From Campylobacterota bacterium (GTDB lineage: Bacteria > Campylobacterota > Campylobacteria > Campylobacterales > Sulfurovaceae): 39,927 nucleotides of DNA. Below the pieces are notes generated by a model. It did no database searches and was not told the DNA's origin. It was given only the letters and a program-made list of their open reading frames with translations. The translations under genes were made by a program, and so were the position numbers. Location: contig VCAW01000022.1 in the NCBI GenBank assembly GCA_013607775.1, positions 1-39,927 on the forward strand, read 5' to 3'. Below, piece after piece: positions 20,917-32,266 of the stretch (position 1 is the stretch's first letter; every line of letters starts with the position of its first letter).

Positions 20917-21894
20917 TTATTCAGTAAGTCCATTTAAAATATTTTTCATACCCTCTTGGGCTGCCTCTAAAGTTTGTGTATCCTCTTTGTCTTCTATAGA
21001 CATAGAGCTTAACCAGTTATAGACAGAAGGAAAAGCAACAGTGAGAAGGTTGTTGTCTTTCTTTTTATTTAAGTAAAGTGAACAAGGTGCAAAAGCACCT
21101 GCTTCAGGATGTGTTTTTGCAATGGTGTAGATAACTGGTAGTTTACAGATAGAATATACTTCATAAAAATCATAAGCATTATAATTTGCTTCTTCAAATT
21201 CATCACCAAGGTTGTTAAATCCAGCTATCACAAAACCATTGGGTGCAAGTTCACCTTCAAAACCCATCTTAAATTCATCAAGTTCATCTTCCCACTCTTC
21301 ATCATCCATCTCCATAGTAAAGGTAGTCACAAGTTCACCCTTTGGTTTTTGTATACCATAGCTTGGTGTTGAAAATGTACCTTTTGGTAAGGCAGATTGA
21401 AGTGTCTCTTTTACAAGTTTTCTAAGTGCTAGTAATGTTTTGTCATCACTTGGTGCTTTCATGATTTTAGCCATGGCAGCAGCCGTTAAAGAAGAAACGG
21501 AAATTGTTTTTTCACCCTTCTTTGTATAGATAGACATACTCATAGGAGCAAAGAGTCCCACGTTAGGATATTTTTTTACCAACTCTAAAACAGCATCGGC
21601 TTTGTAAAAAGTAAATAGATTGTAGGTATCAAATCCAGACTCTTTGAATTGTTTAACGAAAGGACCGTTCATATCTCTGTTAGCAGAAACAGTAAAACCA
21701 GCTTTAGTAAAGGCTTCTTCTATACTTTTTGGTGTAATTTTACCATCGCTGTTCTCTGAGCTAATAATCTCTATATCTCCGTTGGCACTTTGTGTACTTT
21801 CAGACTTCTTAATGTCGGTTTTACTTACGGCATTTGCCAAAGCACCACTCATAATCAATGATGCACAAAGCATCCCTTTTACTAACAATTTCAT
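20917..21894 (-). CDS. Periplasmic DUF302-like protein, two-repeat (paralogue 2)
   Basis: Function unknown. It has a signal peptide (MKLLVKGMLCASLIMSGALA) and two related halves. The first contains NVGLFAPMSMSIY and the second EAGAFAPCSLYL followed by VYNWLSSM. It matches the paralogue at 5217-6215 in order and in two cysteines of the second half (YSICKLP and FAPCS). The 5' leader carries a small stem-loop (AGCATC 21913-21918 with GATGCT 21925-21930). The promoter shows the TTTACA direct repeat and -10 spacing found upstream of soxX, which links it to thiosulfate oxidation. AAAGGAAAA precedes the start. Confidence 0.72.
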   Translation of the reverse strand: MKLLVKGMLCASLIMSGALANAVSKTDIKKSESTQSANGDIEIISSENSDGKITPKSIEEAFTKAGFTVSANRDMNGPFVKQFKESGFDTYNLFTFYKADAVLELVKKYPNVGLFAPMSMSIYTKKGEKTISVSSLTAAAMAKIMKAPSDDKTLLALRKLVKETLQSALPKGTFSTPSYGIQKPKGELVTTFTMEMDDEEWEDELDEFKMGFEGELAPNGFVIAGFNNLGDEFEEANYNAYDFYEVYSICKLPVIYTIAKTHPEAGAFAPCSLYLNKKKDNNLLTVAFPSVYNWLSSMSIEDKEDTQTLEAAQEGMKNILNGLTE

Positions 21895-21980: not shown

Positions 21981-22427
21981 TTAAAGTTTGATATAGGTAT
22001 AACCCTGTAGTTGGCGCTCTATAATCTCTACAATACCTGCTGTACCAAAACTAAGGTCATCTATGAGCTCTTTTTTCTTTATGCCTAAAGTACGTAAAGA
22101 ATTTTCACAGGCGACAAATTCTATATCATAGGTCATCAAGGCTTCTATACGTTTTTTAGTATGGACATCACTGTCTTTACGTAATATTTTAACCCCCTGA
22201 CTATAGACAACCACTACTACTTCAGTGTTTTCAGGACGGTAAAATTTTATGACATTGTTGACGGTACTTATAACATGGTTTACTTCTCTATCATCAACGG
22301 TATCGATAGAAAAAATTATTTTTCTAGGATTGTCTATGGCTGGCTTAGGTGTAGCAAATTCTGTCTCTGCAGATACAAAACTACTAAAACAAATACAAAA
22401 AATACATAATTTTTTTAATCTAAACAT
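21981..22427 (-). CDS. Periplasmic DsrE-like protein
   Basis: A 148-residue protein with a signal peptide (MFRLKKLCIFCICFSSFVSA) and a DsrE/DsrF-type fold pattern: a first strand KIIFSIDTV, a second VVVVVYSQGVKIL, and a conserved cysteine in FVACENSLRTLGI. DsrE-family cysteines can carry persulfide sulfur in sulfur oxidisers. This one is exported rather than cytoplasmic. A second homologue is encoded at 38421-38888. ATG at 22427 is chosen because it begins the signal peptide; the ribosome site is weak, and the start lies 14 bases upstream of the neighbouring stop. It is last in the run metallo-hydrolase, fusion, fusion, DsrE. Confidence 0.75.
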   Translation of the reverse strand: MFRLKKLCIFCICFSSFVSAETEFATPKPAIDNPRKIIFSIDTVDDREVNHVISTVNNVIKFYRPENTEVVVVVYSQGVKILRKDSDVHTKKRIEALMTYDIEFVACENSLRTLGIKKKELIDDLSFGTAGIVEIIERQLQGYTYIKL

Positions 22428-22440
22428 TTTATATACTTTT

Positions 22441-23256
22441 TTATGAGTCAGTCTTTTTCTTAGCAGCAATGGATTCTTTTAAAATATCTAAAAAATCTTC
22501 TTTGCTCCACGCTCCAGGAATACGTTTTATTTTTACTTTATCATTCTCTGCATTGACAAAAATAAAGAAAAAAGTTGGTGTCATTCTTACTCTCAAATCA
22601 AGAGGTAAAGTGTCTTTGCTTAAATCAACATCCACGACAAGAAACTCTTTGTTTAAAAGGTTTACAATATTTTTATCCAAAAGTACCTCTTTCTCCATTT
22701 TCATACAATAGCGACAATGTGGAGCTGTTGCCTTGATTATAATGATTTTATCCTCTTTTTTTGCCCGCTTTAAAGCAGTTTCAAAAGGCAGATTGTGTAC
22801 ACCCTTTTCTTCATGTATTTTCATGTCATAATCATAAACAAAATTACTAATGGCTTCTATATCTTCTGTACTTAGTTTTCCTTTTAGACTGGGCATCGTT
22901 TTAAAATGTTTCCCAATATTAGGATTGAGTACACTTTTTTGTTTATCAGGATAGATGATATAATCAGCAATAAATGCACTCACTTCCATTTTCTGAATAT
23001 CAGCATCTTCTCTAGGATCACCAATCTTTTGTTTCATGCTATATGATATTTGACTAATAGTTGGTGCTTTTAGTTTTAGTAGTGTATTGTTGGATTCAAA
23101 AAAATTCTTAACCAGTTGATCATTCGGCACATAAAGCTGATGACATTGTGAACAAATGTTATTGTAAACATCTTCTCCTCTGTCTGCATGGACTAAAACA
23201 GTACATAACATGCCTAGCACTATAGGTATGATGTTCTTTTTACTATATATTTTCAT
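22441..23256 (-). CDS. Cytochrome c-thioredoxin fusion protein (copy 1)
   Basis: An exported two-domain redox protein of 271 residues. After a signal peptide, a class I cytochrome c domain has the haem site CSQCH (35-39) and a probable Met ligand M121 in KTMPSLKG. It is followed by a thioredoxin-fold domain with C181-R-Y-C184 and the cis-proline segment MTPTFFF. Such a fusion could pass electrons between a thiol/disulfide and a haem. It is a tandem paralogue of the next gene upstream, whose stop overlaps its start by 4 bases (ATGA). Its place below soxXYZAB suggests a role in maintaining SoxYZ or other sulfur-carrying thiols, similar in idea to SoxW, but this is inference. Confidence 0.82.
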   Translation of the reverse strand: MKIYSKKNIIPIVLGMLCTVLVHADRGEDVYNNICSQCHQLYVPNDQLVKNFFESNNTLLKLKAPTISQISYSMKQKIGDPREDADIQKMEVSAFIADYIIYPDKQKSVLNPNIGKHFKTMPSLKGKLSTEDIEAISNFVYDYDMKIHEEKGVHNLPFETALKRAKKEDKIIIIKATAPHCRYCMKMEKEVLLDKNIVNLLNKEFLVVDVDLSKDTLPLDLRVRMTPTFFFIFVNAENDKVKIKRIPGAWSKEDFLDILKESIAAKKKTDS

Positions 23257-24029
23257 TTTCTATCCTTTGAATGTGATTTTGCTTCTTTAAGAAGTTCTAA
23301 AAAGTCATTTTTTGCCCATGCCCCCGGGATATTCATAATGATATTTTTATGGGTGTCTATAAAAATGAAGCTTGGTGTTGCTTCGACTTTTAGTCCAAGA
23401 GGTAAGCTGTGTTTATTCACATCTATAGCTACAGGGATAAAGTCTTTTTCTATCGCTTCTACTACCTGGGGTTCTATCATGACTTCCCGTTCCATTTTTC
23501 TACAAAAGTGGCAGGTACTTGTCATAGATTCAATCATAATGAGTTTGTTCTCTTTTTTGGCACGTTGTAATGCAGCTTTAAAGCCTTCAAATTTGACACC
23601 TTTTGCTTTTACAACCTCTTTTTCAAAATCATACAGATACTCACCTATGCTTTCAAGTTCCTCTTCACTAACCTTACCTTTGAGTGAAGGCATCGTTTTA
23701 AATTGTGACAATACTTCCTCTAGACAGACACTTTTGTCTTTGTCTGGGTTGTAAACATAGTCACTCATAAATGCTGAGACTTCCATACGGTGTAACTCTT
23801 CATCACCTTTAGGATCACCTATGCGTTGTTTGAGTCTGTAGGAGAGTTGATTGAGTGTAGGAGCTTTAAGTTTGAGCAGACTGTTGTTATGGTCTAAAAA
23901 GTTCTCTTTGAGCTTCAACATAGGAATAAAAGGTGTATGACAAGAGGCACAATGTTTTGTAAACAATACTTTGCCATCATTTGCCCATAGACTGAGCATC
24001 ATTATGAGTAATAGTTCTAAAATTTTCAC
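23253..24029 (-). CDS. Cytochrome c-thioredoxin fusion protein (copy 2)
   Basis: 258 residues with the same plan as the downstream neighbour: a signal peptide, haem site CASCH (27-31), Met ligand M113 in KTMPSLKG, then a thioredoxin-fold domain with C173-H-F-C176 and cis-proline segment ATPSFIF. Shared blocks such as LLKLKAP, MEVSAF and TMPSLKGK show that the two arose by tandem duplication and then diverged considerably. An extra cysteine (C102, SVCLEEV) is not shared. Start and stop codons overlap with both neighbours, so the genes are translated from one mRNA. Confidence 0.82.
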   Translation of the reverse strand: MKILELLLIMMLSLWANDGKVLFTKHCASCHTPFIPMLKLKENFLDHNNSLLKLKAPTLNQLSYRLKQRIGDPKGDEELHRMEVSAFMSDYVYNPDKDKSVCLEEVLSQFKTMPSLKGKVSEEELESIGEYLYDFEKEVVKAKGVKFEGFKAALQRAKKENKLIMIESMTSTCHFCRKMEREVMIEPQVVEAIEKDFIPVAIDVNKHSLPLGLKVEATPSFIFIDTHKNIIMNIPGAWAKNDFLELLKEAKSHSKDRK

Positions 24030-24940
24030 TCGTCATCCTCCATCATCTCTAACTCTTTGTATGCATCTAAAATATTACGTTTATGTAGTGCATTATACAG
24101 TTTCATCTCTGCAAAGTTCGGCATGGTTACTTTTTTGTTTATCTCTTCCATACCTATGTCATTCTCTTGTGCTTCCAAAATCTCTTTTTTCATTTGGGAT
24201 AAGTATCTTTTCAAGGAAACCGTGGCATTGGTATCGGTTTTTTGTCCATGTCCACCGACAATCACTTTAGCATGATAGGCATCTATCTTTTTTAAAGCTT
24301 CAAGTGATCCTAAAATGGATCCATCCCTTAGGGAAGTTAGTCTATCATTAAATACCAAATCACCTGCAAATAAAACACTCTGTTCTTTTAGGTAGACAAT
24401 CAAATCACCTTTAGTATGTGCAATATTGGTGAGTTGTTTTATTTGAAATGTACTCTCTGCTAGTGCGAGTGTCAGGTTATCATCTACAATAGTATCTAGG
24501 GGTACTATTTTGGTCTTTCCATTCAGTTCTTTCCCAAGGATGCGCTCCATTCTGGTCTGCATCCCTACAATGACATTTTGTTCATACGTCCGTGGACCTA
24601 TCAACAAAGCACCTTTGCTTTTATAAAAGCTGTTTCCTTGCCAGTGATCGTCATGATCATGGGTAACAATAACATATTTTACGGGGAGTTTCGCGATTTT
24701 TTGCATTTGCATATATGCTTGAGAAGCATAAGTATAAGTAGGACCGCTGTCGATGACAACGAATCCTTTTTTGGTTTGCACAAAGCAAGTATTGACAATA
24801 TTGCCAGCATTTTGCTGGTTAATATTTTCAGGGAGACCAAAAAAACAATAACTATTTTCTGCTACTTTTTGTGGCTTGAGATTATATTCAAAGCCATAGA
24901 CAAAGGAAAATGTTAGCAGTATTAAATATATACTTTTCAA
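24026..24940 (-). CDS. Exported metallo-beta-lactamase-fold hydrolase (SoxH-like)
   Basis: A zinc-dependent hydrolase of 304 residues with a short signal peptide (MKSIYLILLTFSFVYG). The metal-binding motif THDHDDHW gives H94, H96, D98 and H99. Further ligands are likely in NIAHTKGD, LFAGDLVF and GGHGQK. It resembles SoxH and the quinoprotein-relay metallohydrolases, which are often found near sox genes and may act on thiol-bound substrates. The exact reaction is unknown. It begins 16 bases after the porin stop and overlaps the next gene by ATGA. Confidence 0.8.
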   Translation of the reverse strand: MKSIYLILLTFSFVYGFEYNLKPQKVAENSYCFFGLPENINQQNAGNIVNTCFVQTKKGFVVIDSGPTYTYASQAYMQMQKIAKLPVKYVIVTHDHDDHWQGNSFYKSKGALLIGPRTYEQNVIVGMQTRMERILGKELNGKTKIVPLDTIVDDNLTLALAESTFQIKQLTNIAHTKGDLIVYLKEQSVLFAGDLVFNDRLTSLRDGSILGSLEALKKIDAYHAKVIVGGHGQKTDTNATVSLKRYLSQMKKEILEAQENDIGMEEINKKVTMPNFAEMKLYNALHKRNILDAYKELEMMEDDE

Positions 24941-24956: not shown

Positions 24957-26153
24957 CTAGAATTTAAATTGGTATTGTAACAATACGGTATCATCTTTAT
25001 AGAGTGCACCTACGCCTTTAAATCCTGCGTCCACATCGGCATATACATAGTTTACTTGAACTCTATGTCTATTTCTACCTCTTCTAGCTTTTCTATCCAT
25101 TTTATTGTTTTTAGGGTTAATATAGTAATTTAGACCGATATATGTATTTCTTGCATCAGAGTCCACACCTTTTCTAGTCTCAGTACCAGAAATATCTTTC
25201 ACCGCAAACTCAAGCGTATCTGTTAAGTAATATGTACCTGTAAGTGCTAAGGTATTCATATCCCATCCAGTTGTACCTCTAATATTTTGTACATCATAAT
25301 ATTCAGCTTTGACATTAGCTCTATCAAAGTGTGAGTCAATACCTACGTTTAGCACTTTGTAATCATCACCAGATCCATCTGTTTGACCTTTACCTACACC
25401 ATATCCGATCTCTGTGTGAAGTGCTTGTCCCCAGTCAAACATTAAACGACCCATATATGAATTTGTTTGGTTTGGACTATACACTTTTCCATTTTCATCG
25501 TTAGAGTTTACAGCTCCTGATCTTCCTGTTGCCCCTGACACCATAATATCATAACCAAAACCTTTCCATGGACGCTCATGTCCCATTTCAAGACCATTTA
25601 CTTTACCATTGTTTCCAAAACCAATGTCACGACCAGAAATCATTAATCCCGCTGCTCTTTCAAAGGCTAACTTTTTATCAAAACCACGTTTAATTACATC
25701 AAGATTCCATCCAGGGATAGTGAACCCCATACCTACTGGAGTTTTAATTACACCGGCTTTTAATACCATCGCATCATCAAATTTGTAAGCAATAAATGCA
25801 TCTTTAATTAAATCAGGTACACCAACAGAACCCTTATCTGTACCATCTTTAGCAAAATCTAAAAATACTTTTGCAGCCAATGGTCCTGAAAAATATTTCC
25901 AACCAAGACGAATACGGTCAAATTCGAAACCGAGATCAGCATCATCACCTAACTTAGCACCTGTTCCCATTTTGACACCAATTTGAGAAAAACCAAAGAA
26001 TTTATGTTTACTTTTCCACTCTTTTGCTTTAACAGGGGCACCTGTATCTACCATTGGCTCCATTGGGGCGATATCTCCCCCCGCCATCAATGTATTACTC
26101 ATAAGTAATGCTGCTGCTGTTGCAATCCCTAATTTAATTGTTGTTTGTCTCAT
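24957..26153 (-). CDS. Outer-membrane porin, OprO/OprP-like
   Basis: A 398-residue beta-barrel protein with a signal peptide (to about residue 24, LMSNTLMAGG). The mature part is rich in alternating amphipathic strands and ends in QYQFKF, the terminal-Phe signal for outer-membrane insertion. Blocks such as LKAGVIKTPVGMGF and FERAAGLMISGRDIGF resemble phosphate-selective porins O and P. In this setting it may admit thiosulfate or other anions, which is inference. A strong AGGAGAAAG site precedes the ATG, and the 180-base gap upstream contains two RNA structures. Confidence 0.82.
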   Translation of the reverse strand: MRQTTIKLGIATAAALLMSNTLMAGGDIAPMEPMVDTGAPVKAKEWKSKHKFFGFSQIGVKMGTGAKLGDDADLGFEFDRIRLGWKYFSGPLAAKVFLDFAKDGTDKGSVGVPDLIKDAFIAYKFDDAMVLKAGVIKTPVGMGFTIPGWNLDVIKRGFDKKLAFERAAGLMISGRDIGFGNNGKVNGLEMGHERPWKGFGYDIMVSGATGRSGAVNSNDENGKVYSPNQTNSYMGRLMFDWGQALHTEIGYGVGKGQTDGSGDDYKVLNVGIDSHFDRANVKAEYYDVQNIRGTTGWDMNTLALTGTYYLTDTLEFAVKDISGTETRKGVDSDARNTYIGLNYYINPKNNKMDRKARRGRNRHRVQVNYVYADVDAGFKGVGALYKDDTVLLQYQFKF

Positions 26154-26264: not shown

Positions 26265-26338
26265 CATAGTGTGCCCCGTCCCTTTAAAAAGAGACTGACA
26301 ATGAACTTTATGAAGAACGAGGCACGGTTACTACTATG
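26265..26338 (-). other. Long imperfect inverted repeat at the soxB 3' end
   Basis: CATAGT (26265-26270) pairs with ACTATG (26333-26338). Inside it GTGCCCCGT (26271-26279) pairs with ACGAGGCAC (26317-26325) with one mismatch, and an inner stem pairs GTC-CTTT (26278-26285) with AAAG-GAC (26288-26295). The outer arm covers the soxB stop codon. No U-tract follows, so processing or partial termination between soxB and the porin gene is more likely than a simple terminator. Confidence 0.5.
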
Positions 26339-28112
26339 AACAGGTTGCACCTTTTACGGGACATCCACAATCCATATCTAAAATTTTGACATTTGACTCC
26401 ATAGGGATATCAATGATTTTTTGTCTACGTATGTAGTCAGAGACCACTTCATAGACAGGACGAATAGCCTTTTCATCTAAGTTTTCACCTACATTTTGTA
26501 AGTTTCCACCCCATGATGAAACTCTATATGTCTTTTTCATATCTATTGGTTTACCTCCTATCATAAAGTCACTAATTCTCTTACCTGATGGCGCAGAGAT
26601 TTTAATGCTGTAGCTTGCACCCGTCATTCTACTCATGTCTCCACCTTGTTGTAGCAGTGGGTTTGAGTTAAAGACATTATCAGCAATATCTTCTACCAAT
26701 TTAGCAATCACTTCACCTTTTAAGTCAAAGGTATAGACTTCCGGGTAGGTAATTGCTGTCATTTCATAGACATTTTCTTTTAGTATTGGGTCACCTGGAA
26801 GTACAGTTGTACCCCATCTGTAGCCTGGGTTAAAGTTAATATCACATTTCATCTCATCTTGAATCGCCATACCTATGAGTGAATCAAAGGTCGAATAGAA
26901 AGTATCTCTTTTGTAAAGTAGACCTTTTGTCGTACCTAACACTTCACTGAGCTCTTTGTCAAATGGCTTATACCATTTAGCAATAAGATCTTCTCCTGCT
27001 TTATCAGCAGGAATAAGATGAGAAGCCACAGGGATAAGCTTAAAGTTGTAATCTACTACTTTTTTATCTTTGATATCCAAGTCAAGTCTAGAGATATATT
27101 TACCATGACTTCCAGAGATAATAATCACTGTATCGTTTACGATAATAGGCTCTGGGCTAGGATCATGTGTATGTCCACTTAAAATAAAGTCAATACCATT
27201 CACCTTTTTAGCAAGCTCTTGGTCTACAGAGAAACCATCATGACTAAGTACAACAATAGCATCTACTTTTTTCTCTTTACGAAGCATATTTACATACTCT
27301 TGTAAAGATTCGTGACGCAAGGCAAAACTCCAACCTTCAGTAAACTTTTTAGGGTTTGCTGTAGACGTAAACGGGAATGACTGTCCGATGATACCTATCT
27401 TCGCACCACCAATTTCCTGAATAGAATATGGAGGGAAAATAAGCTCTTCAAACTCATCTGAGAAAGGGTCGTTGTCTATCACATTTTGTGAAATAAACTC
27501 ACCATTTAGTTTCCCAATAAGTTCATGGACACGCTCTTTACCATACGTAAATTCCCAGTGACCTACCATGACATCTACACCCAAATAGTTTTGTGCATCT
27601 ACTATCGCTTCACCATCTGTTTTAAGTGCTACAGCTGTACCTTGCCATGTATCTCCAGAGTCAAGAAGAATAACATTCTTTTCTCCTCTCTCTTTTTTCA
27701 CATGGTCAATAATAGGTTTCATATGTGCAATACCACCCATTTTTCCAAACTTTTTAGCCAGTTCGGTAAAATCATTGTGTGTATCAAAATAAGCATCTAA
27801 AGAACCTGGTTGGATACCATAATACTTTTGGAAACTCTCTCCACAAATAAATCCAGGTGTACCCACCAAGTTTTTTGCAGAGATCAAAGTCGATGGCTCT
27901 CTCCAATAGAGTGGTTTGATATGTGCATGTAGATCACATATATGAAGGATGGTTGCTTTACCTTTTGGTTCAAAAGAAACCACATCAGAAAAGCTTAATT
28001 TTTTAATCTTCTCTTTTGCTGCTTCTCCTGCAAAAAGATTGGTTCCTCCTGTCACACCTACTAAACCAAGTGCTGAAGCTATCTGGAGGAAGTCTCGTCT
28101 ATCTATTTCCAT
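26334..28112 (-). CDS. soxB: Thiosulfohydrolase SoxB
   Basis: It hydrolyses the sulfone group from S-sulfonated SoxY, releasing sulfate in the periplasm. The 592-residue protein has a twin-arginine signal (DRRDFLQIAS), the dimanganese site beginning ICDLHAHIKP (D60, H62, H64), the VGHWEFTYG block, GHTHDPSPEP, and the 5'-nucleotidase-like C-terminal domain with INFNPGYRWG. All match SoxB. The extreme C-terminus carries three cysteines (C582, C584, C591, in CGCPVKGATC). It follows soxA by 9 bases. Confidence 0.96.
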   Translation of the reverse strand: MEIDRRDFLQIASALGLVGVTGGTNLFAGEAAKEKIKKLSFSDVVSFEPKGKATILHICDLHAHIKPLYWREPSTLISAKNLVGTPGFICGESFQKYYGIQPGSLDAYFDTHNDFTELAKKFGKMGGIAHMKPIIDHVKKERGEKNVILLDSGDTWQGTAVALKTDGEAIVDAQNYLGVDVMVGHWEFTYGKERVHELIGKLNGEFISQNVIDNDPFSDEFEELIFPPYSIQEIGGAKIGIIGQSFPFTSTANPKKFTEGWSFALRHESLQEYVNMLRKEKKVDAIVVLSHDGFSVDQELAKKVNGIDFILSGHTHDPSPEPIIVNDTVIIISGSHGKYISRLDLDIKDKKVVDYNFKLIPVASHLIPADKAGEDLIAKWYKPFDKELSEVLGTTKGLLYKRDTFYSTFDSLIGMAIQDEMKCDINFNPGYRWGTTVLPGDPILKENVYEMTAITYPEVYTFDLKGEVIAKLVEDIADNVFNSNPLLQQGGDMSRMTGASYSIKISAPSGKRISDFMIGGKPIDMKKTYRVSSWGGNLQNVGENLDEKAIRPVYEVVSDYIRRQKIIDIPMESNVKILDMDCGCPVKGATCS

Positions 28113-28121
28113 TGGGTACCT

Positions 28122-28895
28122 CTATCTTTTTAAACCAGGGATACTGATTTTTTTATTTTTCTCTTGCGCAAGTGTTGCAACATATACTTCAAGTGCAATC
28201 ATCTCTTTTGATCCAATAGGAATAACTTTTAAAAGCGCATTTTTCATACAACCTTGAAATCTTCTTTGTGGTGTACGTAGACTTGATTTTGTCATACGAT
28301 ATGCAGGCCATGTTCCCGCCACTGCCACTTCACCTAAATCAGGAAGAGGTTGTGTTCTAAGTACCTGTCCTACAATGTCAGCTGAGTGACAAGAATTACA
28401 AGCCAATCCTCTACCCCCACGTGCAGTCATGTATGTTGTTTTACCTAATTCATAGGCTACTTTTTCATGTGGCTCAGAAAGATCGATGTTTACAAGTTCA
28501 TCATTTGCCAAAGACTTAACATATGCCATCATTGAGAACATTTTCCCAGACTTGAGCTTTGTTTTCTTTTTACCTTGTTCTGCTTCCATCGCTTGCATGA
28601 CCTGATCAAGTCCTACAACATTTCCAAGTTTTTTAACGTATCTTGGGAATCCTGCAATATATTTTGGTAAATCTTTCTCTGAAACACCTAAGAATTTAGC
28701 CAAGGCTTCTTCTCCGCCTAGTGATTCTTCTAAAATCTCTCCACCCTCTTCAACATGAATCTCTGCAGGGTTGTTTTCTAGCATCTCTTTGTACATTGCT
28801 CTATCTGCATCACTCATAGTAAATTGCTCCCCAGCATTAAGCTGAAGCATTGCCATCGTGCTTAGAAAAGCAAGTGATAATATTACTTTTTTCAT
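28122..28895 (-). CDS. soxA: Thiosulfate-oxidising cytochrome SoxA
   Basis: Catalytic subunit of SoxXA, which couples thiosulfate to the SoxY cysteine with release of electrons. The 257-residue protein has a signal peptide (to about 21) and a single haem motif CNSCH (166-170). The axial Cys ligand, a persulfide in known SoxA, is C216 in RRFQGCMKN. The usual SoxA block GTWPAYRMTKSSLRTPQRR precedes it. Only one CxxCH is present, so this is the monohaem form. It is 3 bases downstream of soxZ and 9 bases upstream of soxB. Confidence 0.95.
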   Translation of the reverse strand: MKKVILSLAFLSTMAMLQLNAGEQFTMSDADRAMYKEMLENNPAEIHVEEGGEILEESLGGEEALAKFLGVSEKDLPKYIAGFPRYVKKLGNVVGLDQVMQAMEAEQGKKKTKLKSGKMFSMMAYVKSLANDELVNIDLSEPHEKVAYELGKTTYMTARGGRGLACNSCHSADIVGQVLRTQPLPDLGEVAVAGTWPAYRMTKSSLRTPQRRFQGCMKNALLKVIPIGSKEMIALEVYVATLAQEKNKKISIPGLKR

Positions 28896-28898
28896 GAC

Positions 28899-29237
28899 TT
28901 ATCCTTTTGGCTTAAGTTTTTTACTCTTAGAGTTTTTCTCACCAGTGTTATCTGTGTAGTCCACAGTAATCTTCCCTTTACCTGGTACTTTCAAGTTTAC
29001 AGAAAAGTAAGGGTTTGTTGAAACTGTTTCCCATACTTTCATAGTTGTAAATGGTTTTCCATCCAGTGAGAAAGTAATATTGTCGATAAAGTGAGCAGGT
29101 TTAACTTTACCTGTTTTTTTATCTTTTTTTAGTCCAGTATCCATTGGGTGAATGACAATAAAATCTACTTTTACTGTATCTCCTACTTTAAACTTTTTAG
29201 GTTTAATTTTAATCATTGATTTTCTAGCTTCTGCCAT
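28899..29237 (-). CDS. soxZ: Sulfur-carrier complex subunit SoxZ
   Basis: The partner that binds SoxY to form the SoxYZ substrate carrier. At 112 residues it shows the small immunoglobulin-like fold pattern VGDTVKVDFIVIHPMDTG, then FSLDGKPFTTMKVW and STNPYFSVNLKVPG, all typical of SoxZ. There is no signal peptide, because SoxZ is exported together with Tat-targeted SoxY. A lysine-rich C-terminus (NSKSKKLKPKG) is seen. The start has AAAGGA upstream. A 60-base gap separates it from soxY. Confidence 0.94.
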   Translation of the reverse strand: MAEARKSMIKIKPKKFKVGDTVKVDFIVIHPMDTGLKKDKKTGKVKPAHFIDNITFSLDGKPFTTMKVWETVSTNPYFSVNLKVPGKGKITVDYTDNTGEKNSKSKKLKPKG

Positions 29238-29297: not shown

Positions 29298-29765
29298 TCA
29301 ACCACATCCACCGATAGTTACTTTCACTGGTTTAGCTGCTCTTAAAAAGCTACCATCACTCATCTCTACAAGTGCTACAACATCTTGTGTTCCACCAAGT
29401 TTCACTCTTGTTGCAAAGTATCCTTTTCCATTCAGTGGCGTAAGCATTACATCTGCACATCTTGCATTACCATTTTTAGTAGTAAGTACATGAATCGCTT
29501 TTACATGATCTGCTTCAGTCATTGGAGACTCTACATTTACTTTTACAGGTACTACTGCACCATTTTCTGCAATCTCAGGTACCGTGAGTGATACTTTTGC
29601 ACTGTCTGTTACTGTTTTACCACCTGTGATAGCTGCTACTGCTGCATCATAAGAGAGTACGTTGCCACCTTTAGGTGCCTCTTTTGCTAAAAGTGCTGAA
29701 GGTGTCATTGTTGCTGCAACTGCTGAAGCTGCACAGATACCTTTTATAAAATTTCTTCTTTTCAT
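29298..29765 (-). CDS. soxY: Sulfur-carrier protein SoxY
   Basis: It carries sulfur intermediates on a cysteine at a flexible C-terminus. The 155-residue protein begins with a twin-arginine signal (MKRRNFIKGICAAS). The body shows VPEIAENGAVVPVKVNVESP and the C-terminus ends VTIGGCG, with the carrier C154. Canonical SoxY ends GGCGG, so one final glycine is missing. With SoxZ it forms the SoxYZ carrier. The gene is 18 bases downstream of soxX. Confidence 0.95.
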   Translation of the reverse strand: MKRRNFIKGICAASAVAATMTPSALLAKEAPKGGNVLSYDAAVAAITGGKTVTDSAKVSLTVPEIAENGAVVPVKVNVESPMTEADHVKAIHVLTTKNGNARCADVMLTPLNGKGYFATRVKLGGTQDVVALVEMSDGSFLRAAKPVKVTIGGCG

Positions 29766-29783: not shown

Positions 29784-30359
29784 TTATTTTTTCGTTTTGT
29801 CAGATACTACGTAGGCAGTATAATCACATATCTCTTGCTCGTTAAAAAGCCCTGTTGTAAGGTTTACTGTCATATGTGTATTCGCATTGTCTATTCTAGG
29901 ATCGGCAATCTTTTGGTAGACAAACTGTGCATCTCTTGCGTTTGTATCGATAAAGTTTGCTTTGTAACTCTCTAGGCTTGGACCAATGTTACCTGCACCT
30001 TTTGCACCTTCTATGTTATGACACGCAACACAGTTACCAAATTGTTTTGCTTTTTTCTTGACTTTACCATCTTTGCCTTTTTTCTCAACAAATTTTACAA
30101 GTCCTTCTGGTGCTGGCTTCTTTGCCTTTTTACCATTAAGGTTGTGAAACATGTATTTCCCTCTTGCAATCGCCTTTGGGTCATTTAGGTCACAACTTTT
30201 TGGCATGGTATACTTCTTAGCTGCCGGGAATAAATCTTTTTTAATCATCTCTGTTGCATCTGGCATATCATATGCTTTTGTCAAGTCCATCGCGCATACT
30301 GCTGATGAAGCCGATAAAAACAATGCTGTTATTGCTAGATATTTGAATTTCGTATGCAT
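29784..30359 (-). CDS. soxX: Cytochrome SoxX
   Basis: The small cytochrome subunit of SoxXA that receives electrons from the thiosulfate reaction. The protein is 191 residues with a signal peptide (to about residue 23, SSAVCA) and haem motif CVACH (110-114). The Met ligand is probably in NTHMTVNL near the C-terminus. A lysine-rich insert (about 78-106) precedes the haem site. It leads the soxXYZAB operon. AAAGGAG sits just before the ATG, and a direct-repeat promoter lies at 30394-30435. Confidence 0.93.
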   Translation of the reverse strand: MHTKFKYLAITALFLSASSAVCAMDLTKAYDMPDATEMIKKDLFPAAKKYTMPKSCDLNDPKAIARGKYMFHNLNGKKAKKPAPEGLVKFVEKKGKDGKVKKKAKQFGNCVACHNIEGAKGAGNIGPSLESYKANFIDTNARDAQFVYQKIADPRIDNANTHMTVNLTTGLFNEQEICDYTAYVVSDKTKK

Positions 30360-30453: not shown

Positions 30454-31617
30454 TTAATTTTTATTATTGGTAGGAAAAGTGTATTTAAAAGTAGTACCTT
30501 TGCCTAGGTTGGAGAGGACATCTAAAAGAATATTTTCTTCATCAATGATATGTTTTACAATATTAAGTCCTATACCAAAGCCCCCTTTTGCTTCATCTTC
30601 TCTGTAGTATCTGGAAAAAATCTTTTCAACATTCTCGATGCCCACACCATAATCTTTCACTAAAAAGACAATACCCTCTTCGTCTCTAAAGAGTTTTATC
30701 TCTATGGATGTTTGCATATGACTGTACTTGATAGCATTTGAAATAGTATTGTCTACGATGCGTTGGAGTTTTGTTTTGGAGAAGTCATAATAGATATTTT
30801 TATCCATTTGTACCTCAAGTTTAATCTCCTTGAGATTGGCTATTTCTTGAAAGTAGTCTATACGATTGTTAATAAACTCTCCAAAATCAATCTCCTGTCG
30901 TTTATGTTCTACTCTTCCCTGTTTTACCAAATAATCCATATCGTTGTAGATAGTTGCCAAAGTTTTTGAAGCAGACTTCATGCGTTGTAAATATTTGTTG
31001 TTCCCATACTTGTTAGCAAACAAATCTGCATTGAGGTTGATGATACTCAAAGGGGTGTTTATCTCATGCATTGAGTCTTTGATAAAGTTGTCCAACTGAT
31101 TGTTTAGTTTTTCAAAAGGTTTTGAAAAGTTTCTCAGTAAGAGAAAAGAGAAAGCAAAAAGTGCAAGTACTATAGCAATCATCACCAAAGCAGCAAAATA
31201 GTAAATTTTATTGGCAACATGGGTAGTAGAGACCAGTAAATAGTTAGCGCCAAAGTAGTAATCATCCGGCAAGGTATAGATGTAATAAAAATGATTTCTT
31301 TTTTTATGAAACCCTTCAGTAAAGGAGTTGGGTGTAAAGTCAAGTGTACTAAAAATAGCTTGGTACTTATCATCATAGAGTGCTGCTTTGTAGGCTTTAT
31401 ATCGAGGAAAATGGTACACCTTGTCACCATTGTCATATTTTTGCATCGAATTAATAATCTGTTTGGATTGATTTTCCAACGCCAGTTTTACTTTTGCCTC
31501 ATCTATCTGTAAAAGAAGTCCAACATACACAACAAGCGGTGCCATAAGAAGCACAGCAAGAATAATAGTATAACGAAGGGCATACTTCTTGGCAAAAGCA
31601 TCGGTATTAAAAATCAA
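30454..31617 (-). CDS. Sensor histidine kinase
   Basis: A membrane kinase of 387 residues with two transmembrane spans (about 15-36 and 138-162) around a small periplasmic domain of roughly 100 residues. The phospho-accepting H184 is in DSMHEINTPLS. The ATPase domain shows the N box NTISNAIKYSH, G1 DYGVGIE and G2 GGFGIGLNIV. It overlaps the response-regulator gene by 11 bases and lies immediately upstream of soxX on the same strand. Regulation of sox genes is inferred from position and from the repeats between the two. Confidence 0.92.
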   Translation of the reverse strand: MIFNTDAFAKKYALRYTIILAVLLMAPLVVYVGLLLQIDEAKVKLALENQSKQIINSMQKYDNGDKVYHFPRYKAYKAALYDDKYQAIFSTLDFTPNSFTEGFHKKRNHFYYIYTLPDDYYFGANYLLVSTTHVANKIYYFAALVMIAIVLALFAFSFLLLRNFSKPFEKLNNQLDNFIKDSMHEINTPLSIINLNADLFANKYGNNKYLQRMKSASKTLATIYNDMDYLVKQGRVEHKRQEIDFGEFINNRIDYFQEIANLKEIKLEVQMDKNIYYDFSKTKLQRIVDNTISNAIKYSHMQTSIEIKLFRDEEGIVFLVKDYGVGIENVEKIFSRYYREDEAKGGFGIGLNIVKHIIDEENILLDVLSNLGKGTTFKYTFPTNNKN

Positions 31618-32266
31618 TGCTATATCCTACGCCACGCACATTTTTAATGAAGTCTTTTTCAAGCTTTTTACGCAAGTTACCTACTTGTACGCGAATATTT
31701 GCAGAGTCCACCCACTCTCCCCAAACCTCTTCCCAAAACATCTCACAGCCCACGACTGAACCACGTTGCTTGATAAGAAGTTCCAAAATTTTAGTTTCTG
31801 TTTTTCCTAGTTTAATACTCTCTCCATTGCGTAGGAGTTTCATTTTTTTTACATCATATATATAATCATTGGGTAGTTCAATTTGCTCATCACTTGAAGC
31901 AAAGCAGTGTGTTTTGACAACTTGTTCAACACGTAATTTTAATTCTGCCAAATCAAAAGGTTTACGTATATAGTCACAGGCACCACACTCATAACCTCGA
32001 CTCAGGTCATCAATCTCTGTAAGTGAGGTAATGAATATGGCAGGTGTTTTGTTCCCATCTTTACGTAACTCTTCAAGCATTTCAAAACCATTTTTCTCTC
32101 CACCTACTTTGACATCCAAGAGGTACAAATCATAACTATGTTCATAACTTGCATCATAGGCCTCATCTGAGTTAGCAAAGCAGGTGACCTCATAGCCACA
32201 ATCTTCTAAATACTCCTGCATACTTAATGCCAAAACGGTTTCATCTTCTAAAATAAGGATTTTCAT
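31607..32266 (-). CDS. OmpR/PhoB-family response regulator
   Basis: A 219-residue two-domain regulator. The receiver domain has acidic residues ED at 7-8, the phosphorylation site D51 in YLLDVKVGG and the conserved lysine in IRKPFDLAELK. The C-terminal winged-helix DNA-binding domain includes LGKTETKILELLIKQRG and ends NVRGVGYSIDF. Proteins of this class bind direct repeats with a 10-11 bp period, and such repeats occur on both sides of this gene cluster (30409-30435 and 33441-33457). The start overlaps the stop of the upstream sensor gene (ATGA). Confidence 0.93.
   Translation of the reverse strand: MKILILEDETVLALSMQEYLEDCGYEVTCFANSDEAYDASYEHSYDLYLLDVKVGGEKNGFEMLEELRKDGNKTPAIFITSLTEIDDLSRGYECGACDYIRKPFDLAELKLRVEQVVKTHCFASSDEQIELPNDYIYDVKKMKLLRNGESIKLGKTETKILELLIKQRGSVVGCEMFWEEVWGEWVDSANIRVQVGNLRKKLEKDFIKNVRGVGYSIDF

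What the first reader, a model, noticed from the sequence alone, without database searches (positions are those of the whole stretch)
21981..24940. Periplasmic thiol/haem redox module attached to soxXYZAB
Seen: below soxXYZAB and a porin, a run with overlapping or closely spaced genes encodes a SoxH-like metallo-hydrolase, two cytochrome c-thioredoxin fusions (CxxCH plus CxxC in each) and an exported DsrE-like protein with a conserved cysteine. Known: SoxYZ carries sulfur on a cysteine and needs thiol-redox upkeep (SoxV/SoxW/SoxS in other bacteria), and DsrE proteins can carry persulfide. Inferred: the fusions could oxidise or reduce carrier-bound sulfur and hand electrons straight to haem, an arrangement not described among the standard Sox proteins I know.
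Basis: partly seen in the sequence, partly recalled or inferred. Interest (0 to 1): 0.75.

Follow-up and report, generated by a model that had tools for sequence, protein, structure and literature searches.

The report
Haem-fused SoxW thioredoxins in sox operon
In sulfur-oxidising Campylobacterota, the helper thioredoxin of the thiosulfate-oxidising (Sox) gene cluster is often fused to a haem protein, in clusters that lack its usual electron supplier; this makes a testable but unproven electron route in a known pathway.

Summary
In this Sulfurovum-like genome, soxXYZAB is followed on the same strand by a porin, a SoxH-like metallo-hydrolase, two tandem cytochrome c-thioredoxin fusions, an exported DsrE-like protein and a DUF302 protein. 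It is a conserved sox accessory block. Of 298 Campylobacterota genomes, 24 carry the full fusion and 23 of those have soxB (p = 3e-18). All 73 collected fusions keep CxxCH and CxxC. Two loci carry the same two domains as separate adjacent genes. The thioredoxin half belongs to the SoxW family, by profile match to Rhodobacter and Thermaceae proteins. Other sox loci carry the same thioredoxin without haem. A SoxV/CcdA- or DsbD-type reductant gene lies near sox in 7 of 22 haem-free loci and 0 of 48 fused loci (suggestive only; few independent events). A 2023 paper already reports dsrE-soxW-soxH1 beside sox in Sulfurovum indicum, induced by thiosulfate; no paper I could read mentions a haem on it. 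Best reading: a SoxW variant in which a class-I cytochrome c is the built-in redox partner of a thiol-redox domain acting on SoxY and/or DsrE cysteines. The direction of electron flow is not shown. New variant of a known kind; moderate interest.

The parts
29784..30359 (-). soxX (c-type cytochrome)
   Evidence: CxxCH ORF at the head of the cluster; conserved order in related loci
29298..29765 (-). soxY (sulfur carrier, GGCG terminus)
   Evidence: TIGR04488 161.6 bits, cut-off 125
28899..29237 (-). soxZ
   Evidence: TIGR04490 107.9 bits, cut-off 76
28122..28895 (-). soxA
   Evidence: TIGR04484 201.7 bits, cut-off 110
26334..28112 (-). soxB
   Evidence: TIGR04486 786 bits, cut-off 550
24957..26153 (-). 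outer-membrane porin of the sox block
   Evidence: Porin_4 30.3 bits, above gathering; same position in relatives
24026..24940 (-). SoxH-like MBL-fold metallo-hydrolase, HxHxDH kept, TTG start
   Evidence: Lactamase_B 68.8 bits; TIGR04558 196 bits, below cut-off 300
23253..24029 (-). cytochrome c-thioredoxin fusion B (SoxW-type), GTG start, overlaps the hydrolase stop by 4 nt
   Evidence: CASCH 23937-23951, CHFC 23502-23513
22441..23256 (-). cytochrome c-thioredoxin fusion A (SoxW-type), overlaps fusion B stop by 4 nt
   Evidence: CSQCH 23140-23154, CRYC 22705-22716, candidate axial Met121; AF2 model pLDDT 88.5
21981..22427 (-). exported DsrE-like protein with invariant Cys (C121 of the 162-aa ORF 21981-22469)
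   Evidence: PF02635 47.4 bits, cut-off 22.7; Cys invariant in 10 of 10 aligned homologues
20917..21894 (-). exported DUF302 protein, end of the conserved block
   Evidence: PF03625 33.5 bits; same position in relatives
30454..31617 (-). sensor histidine kinase upstream of soxX
   Evidence: HATPase_c/HisKA; conserved before soxX
31607..32266 (-). OmpR-type response regulator upstream of soxX
   Evidence: Response_reg and Trans_reg_C

Best explanation
The two fusions are haem-bearing versions of SoxW, the periplasmic thioredoxin accessory of the Sox thiosulfate-oxidising system. The C-terminal thioredoxin domain (CxxC) acts on cysteines of the Sox carrier SoxY and/or the co-encoded DsrE-like protein. 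The N-terminal class-I cytochrome c is its built-in redox partner, taking the place of the SoxV/CcdA membrane reductant used elsewhere. With a His/Met-type haem, electrons would run from the reduced CxxC (having oxidised a thiol or persulfide) to the haem and on to periplasmic cytochromes and the terminal oxidase. Shown here: architecture, motif conservation, sox linkage, SoxW-family kinship of the thioredoxin half. Inferred: substrate, haem-to-CxxC coupling, direction of flow.
For: Sox linkage: 23 of 24 full-fusion genomes have soxB against 32 of 274 without the fusion, Fisher p = 3e-18. The fusion lies next to soxB and DsrE in both divergent Campylobacterota sox operon types, Sulfurovum type and Arcobacter type. 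Motifs: CxxCH and CxxC in 73 of 73, candidate axial Met in 59 of 73. Rosetta stone: in L140 and L141 the thioredoxin and cytochrome are separate adjacent genes in the same place in the operon. SoxW kinship: hhalign probability 98.8% to the Thermaceae sox-linked thioredoxin, 96.8% to Rhodobacter SoxW, 88.9% to SoxS; the nearest solved structure, 2lst, is 65% identical to the Thermaceae protein. Partner swap: a SoxV/CcdA- or DsbD-type gene lies in the sox locus in 0 of 48 fused and 7 of 22 haem-free loci; the two genomes with a SoxV homologue beside a thioredoxin at sox (L072, L074) lack the fusion. The S. indicum soxW at this position rises with dsrE and soxH1 on thiosulfate (PMC10045233). General knowledge: a His/Met class-I haem is far more oxidising than a thioredoxin CxxC, so flow from thiol to haem is favourable.
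Against: Twenty-five other sox loci carry the thioredoxin with no haem domain of this family in the locus, so the thiol function does not require it. The partner-swap pattern rests on about three independent events and has no statistical power after tree correction. Every one of 56 genomes has a DsbD_TM protein somewhere, and a non-sox clade of the same fusion lies downstream of a DsbD gene, which points to reductive wiring there. The candidate axial Met is displaced in 10 and missing in 4 of 73, so the haem potential may differ. Direct dithiol-to-single-haem transfer has a one-electron/two-electron mismatch. No inter-domain geometry was available to me.
Confidence: 0.45

Rival explanations
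1. Reductive SoxW with a passenger cytochrome. The thioredoxin half is an ordinary SoxW/SoxS-like reductase that repairs wrongly oxidised SoxY, charged by a DsbD/CcdA protein encoded elsewhere. The cytochrome is not its redox partner but an electron shuttle for SoxAX/SoxCD that the thioredoxin tethers to SoxYZ.
For: SoxW is reduced by SoxV (Appia-Ayme and Berks 2002, cited in PMC10451225) and SoxS reduces false mixed disulfides of SoxYZ (PMC10451225). Haem-free thioredoxins occupy the same slot in 25 sox loci. DsbD_TM proteins occur in all 56 genomes tested. A paralogous fusion clade lies downstream of DsbD.
Against: No SoxV/DsbD gene in any of 48 fused sox loci. An oxidising haem on the same chain would drain a reductase. 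The split loci keep the cytochrome next to the thioredoxin.
Confidence: 0.33
2. A thiol chaperone for cytochrome c maturation: the thioredoxin half reduces apocytochrome CxxCH thiols of SoxX, SoxA and SoxD (CcmG-like), with no role in sulfur chemistry.
For: Periplasmic thioredoxins do this in other systems (general knowledge); the sox cluster encodes several c-type cytochromes.
Against: Sequence and fold match SoxW/DUF255/DsbD-gamma types, and a TlpA-family protein used as query found no fusion. The consistent partners are DsrE and SoxH-like genes.
Confidence: 0.08
3. A sulfane-sulfur relay: the thioredoxin CxxC removes persulfide sulfur from SoxY and passes it to the DsrE cysteine, with the haem as a minor or sensing element.
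For: DsrE is the immediate or near downstream neighbour in most loci and its Cys is invariant. DsrE/TusA homologues carry thiosulfate (PMC4175335, abstract).
Against: No evidence here for sulfur transfer by this thioredoxin; the conserved haem in all 73 fusions is left unexplained.
Confidence: 0.12

Closest known systems
SoxW (periplasmic thioredoxin of alphaproteobacterial and Thermaceae sox clusters)
   Same: Thioredoxin fold, CxxC, export, sox linkage; profile match 96.8-98.8%
   Different: SoxW is haem-free and, in the Rhodobacter locus, follows a CcdA-family gene (SoxV); here it is fused to a class-I cytochrome c with no soxV in the operon
SoxW/DsrE/SoxH1 of Sulfurovum indicum (PMC10045233)
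   Same: Same gene order next to soxB; induced 2.17-3.83-fold on thiosulfate
   Different: Described as a plain thioredoxin; probably the same fusion (all sox operons seen in the window's genus have it), but its sequence was not checked here
SoxS (thiol-disulfide oxidoreductase that reduces SoxYZ mixed disulfides)
   Same: Periplasmic Trx-like protein acting in sulfur oxidation
   Different: Weaker profile match (88.9%), no haem, divergent soxS gene beside regulator and transporter genes
DsbD C-terminal (gamma) domain and DUF255/DsbH thioredoxins
   Same: Same Thioredoxin_2/7/DUF255 sequence space and fold
   Different: DsbD is a membrane protein fed from the cytoplasm; none found here has a fused cytochrome c of this type
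Sulfurovum mangrovi WP_229938453.1, annotated 'DUF255 domain-containing protein'
   Same: Same fusion in the same sox block on a 395-kb plasmid
   Different: The reading frame is annotated as two genes in that record

Membership tests
SoxW | Thioredoxin fold with CxxC of the SoxW type | tested here: met
   hhalign 98.8% and 96.8% to two sox-linked SoxW-type proteins; CxxC 73/73; AF2 model matches 2lst, TM-score 0.81 by target length
SoxW | Encoded with the sox genes | tested here: met
   Adjacent to soxB in both operon types; 23/24 co-occurrence
SoxW | Partner SoxV (CcdA) encoded alongside | tested here: not met
   No SoxV/CcdA/DsbD gene in 48 fused loci; a CcdA-like protein and a short DsbD are elsewhere in the window's genome
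SoxW | Reduced by SoxV; needed for thiosulfate oxidation | not testable with these tools
   Needs biochemistry and genetics
SoxS | SoxS-type sequence | tested here: inconclusive
   hhalign 88.9% over 81 columns; weaker than SoxW; phmmer with SoxS finds one fusion at E = 1e-3
Class-I c-type cytochrome | CxxCH haem motif | tested here: met
   73/73 fusions
Class-I c-type cytochrome | Distal axial Met C-terminal to the motif | tested here: inconclusive
   Met-Pro in 59/73; shifted in 10 and absent in 4 of the Arcobacter-type clade; ligation itself not testable
SoxH-related quinoprotein-relay hydrolase (TIGR04558/04559) | Score above curated cut-off | tested here: not met
   196 vs 300 and 176.9 vs 280 bits; called SoxH-like only. 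BLASTP to a Rhodobacter sox-linked MBL protein gives only 30 bits
DsrE/DsrF family (PF02635) | Score above gathering threshold and conserved Cys | tested here: met
   47.4 vs 22.7 bits; Cys invariant in 10/10
TusC/DsrF sulfurtransferase subunit | NCBIfam equivalog cut-off | tested here: not met
   17.5 vs 94.15 bits

The most novel reading that the evidence does not exclude
Campylobacterota converted SoxW from a SoxV-fed reductase into a thiol:cytochrome c oxidoreductase, with haem substituting for SoxV, so that electrons from SoxY- or DsrE-bound thiol or persulfide enter the respiratory chain by a route distinct from SoxAX and SoxCD.
Probability: 0.25. Interest if true: 0.7.

Novelty: new variant of a known kind. 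Interest (0 to 1): 0.45.

Why it matters
Campylobacterota are major sulfur oxidisers at vents and sulfidic interfaces, and what maintains their SoxYZ carrier without soxV in the operon is open (the A. butzleri genome paper noted the lack of soxV, PMC2147049). If the haem is the redox partner of the CxxC, this would be an extra electron exit, or a self-contained maintenance enzyme, in the Sox pathway. Fused, split and haem-free versions in related species give a natural comparative series for testing it. In at least one public record such a gene is named only 'DUF255 domain-containing protein'.

Tried and rejected
Chance neighbourhood: rejected by recurrence of the gene order and by co-occurrence. 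Fusion as a replacement for SoxCD: rejected as a rule, since SoxC is present in 20 of 24 fusion genomes, including this one, and SoxC-less genomes carry either fused or haem-free thioredoxin. Fusion as an ORF-calling artefact: the frame is open and both motifs are conserved in 73 sequences; a few relatives show a stop codon inside the aligned stretch. Search outside the phylum: the genome-contig scan used narrow peptides and returned only Campylobacterota or unnamed bacterial records, the plasmid collection gave only S. mangrovi, and the genome search could not be centred on another phylum; so restriction to Campylobacterota is not established. A tree-corrected test of the DsbD/SoxV pattern lacks power. 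Promoter and terminator scan gave nothing decisive. Fold search found no solved protein matching the whole two-domain model.

Full report
WHAT IS THERE. The window is a 39,927-base contig of a draft Campylobacterota genome (G000, 268 contigs), close to Sulfurovum by its nearest loci. On the minus strand, in order, are a response regulator and sensor kinase, soxX, Y, Z, A, B, then a porin, a SoxH-like metallo-hydrolase, two cytochrome c-thioredoxin fusions, a DsrE-like protein and a DUF302 protein. The hydrolase and first fusion, and the first and second fusions, overlap by 4 nt each, which suggests co-translation.

IS IT MORE THAN CHANCE. Yes. In 298 Campylobacterota genomes a full-length fusion was found in 24 and soxB in 55; 23 of the 24 have soxB (Fisher p = 3e-18). 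The exception, G219, carries only a divergent paralogue, in a non-sox place downstream of a DsbD gene. Around soxB the order soxXYZAB-porin-hydrolase-thioredoxin-DsrE-DUF302 recurs, and a second, Arcobacter-like operon type (soxCDXYZA, then soxB) has the same fusion followed by a MOSC protein and DsrE. In the public genome collection the same block recurs in many Sulfurovum, Sulfurospirillum, Hydrogenimonas and other Campylobacterales records.

ANATOMY. CxxCH and CxxC are present in 73 of 73 distinct fusions; a Met-Pro at the expected axial position is present in 59, displaced in 10 and absent in 4 of the Arcobacter-type clade. An AlphaFold2 model of fusion A has mean pLDDT 88.5 and pTM 0.70, with a helical N-terminal half and a thioredoxin fold at the C-terminus. 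The best solved match is 2lst, a Thermus thioredoxin, for the C-terminal half only. The profile finds cytochrome c6 only weakly for the N-terminal half.

KINSHIP. The thioredoxin half matches SoxW: hhalign 98.8% to the thioredoxin encoded just before soxY in Allomeiothermus, 96.8% to the SoxW that follows a CcdA-family SoxV in a Rhodobacter sox cluster, and 88.9% to SoxS of the same cluster. 2lst is 65% identical to the Allomeiothermus protein over 111 positions, so it is probably a Thermus SoxW, which I did not confirm from the entry itself. In the thioredoxin tree, fused and haem-free forms need only five changes and are interleaved. In the cytochrome tree, all fused, split and nearby Arcobacter haem domains form one supported group apart from other solo cytochromes. 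This fits an early fusion with later splits and losses, though the trees have few columns and cannot orient gain and loss. Two loci show the split state: adjacent thioredoxin and cytochrome genes in the same slot (L140, L141).

THE PARTNER QUESTION. In Rhodovulum, SoxV reduces SoxW; SoxS reduces false mixed disulfides of SoxYZ (cited in PMC10451225). A SoxV/CcdA- or DsbD-type gene lies within the sox locus in 7 of 22 haem-free loci and in none of 48 fused loci (p = 1.4e-4 uncorrected). Two of the seven, L072 and L074, have a SoxV homologue beside a thioredoxin. On the tree these are about three independent events and the corrected test has no power. A later, more sensitive scan found three further haem-free loci (25 in L038-L091). 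All 56 genomes also carry a DsbD_TM protein somewhere. So the pattern is suggestive, not proof, that haem replaces SoxV as redox partner. A contrary hint is the non-sox fusion clade, part of which lies downstream of DsbD.

MECHANISM. My best reading is a haem-bearing SoxW in which the CxxC acts on SoxY and/or DsrE cysteines and exchanges electrons with its own haem, most favourably from thiol to haem. Architecture, conservation, sox linkage and SoxW kinship are shown; substrate, coupling and direction are inference. The main rival is an ordinary reductive SoxW charged by DsbD, with the cytochrome as a tethered shuttle.

NOVELTY. The dsrE-soxW-soxH1 order beside soxB, upregulated 2.17-3.83-fold on thiosulfate, is already published for Sulfurovum indicum (PMC10045233), with SoxW described as a thioredoxin. 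No paper found in ten full-text searches of the open library mentioned a haem on it in the passages I read; most subscription papers were not searchable. In one annotated plasmid record the fusion is named only a DUF255 protein. I rate it a new variant of a known kind.

LIMITS. Distribution outside Campylobacterota is untested apart from a plasmid collection. Inter-domain geometry was not available. Co-occurrence counts treat related genomes as independent. S. indicum soxW was not itself inspected.

Noticed in passing
L182 (G000:C3:1-14000), copies offset by 4229 bases: The genome's soxCD locus (DUF302, MOSC protein, soxC, soxD) occurs as two essentially identical tandem copies (about 100% identity over 4.2 kb) before a soxY-soxZ pair; recent duplication or assembly artefact at a contig end.
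   Followed up: partly
L086 (G221:C1:1762000-1781900), period 3883 bases: A single-contig relative carries three 100% identical tandem copies of the block hydrolase(part)-fusion-fusion-DsrE-DUF302, suggesting recent amplification or a mis-assembly.
   Followed up: partly
L092-L095, L131: A divergent paralogous clade of the fusion (CRGC or CPWC motif) lies away from sox, in most of these loci downstream of a DsbD gene and a CvfB-like gene with a DUF255 protein divergent.
   Followed up: partly
window:38412-38888 (+): A second exported DsrE-like protein with the same conserved Cys, followed by a metallophosphatase-like gene; homologues of it sit near sox operons in several relatives.
   Followed up: partly
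PDB 2lst: A structure deposited as a generic Thermus thermophilus thioredoxin is 65% identical to the thioredoxin encoded beside soxY in Allomeiothermus, so it is probably a SoxW structure.
   Followed up: partly
L190:12013-12806: In the Sulfurovum mangrovi plasmid the fusion is annotated as two genes (DUF255 protein plus a 47-aa hypothetical), i.e. the frame is split near its C-terminus.
   Followed up: no
L049, L043, L054 (Arcobacter-type sox operons): A MOSC-domain protein and an alpha/beta hydrolase flank DsrE downstream of soxB; a MOSC-like protein also precedes soxC in the window's genome.
   Followed up: no
L170, L173 and similar (L165-L175): Proteins of about 260 aa with a related cytochrome domain but a different, CxxC-less C-terminal region; function unknown.
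   Followed up: no
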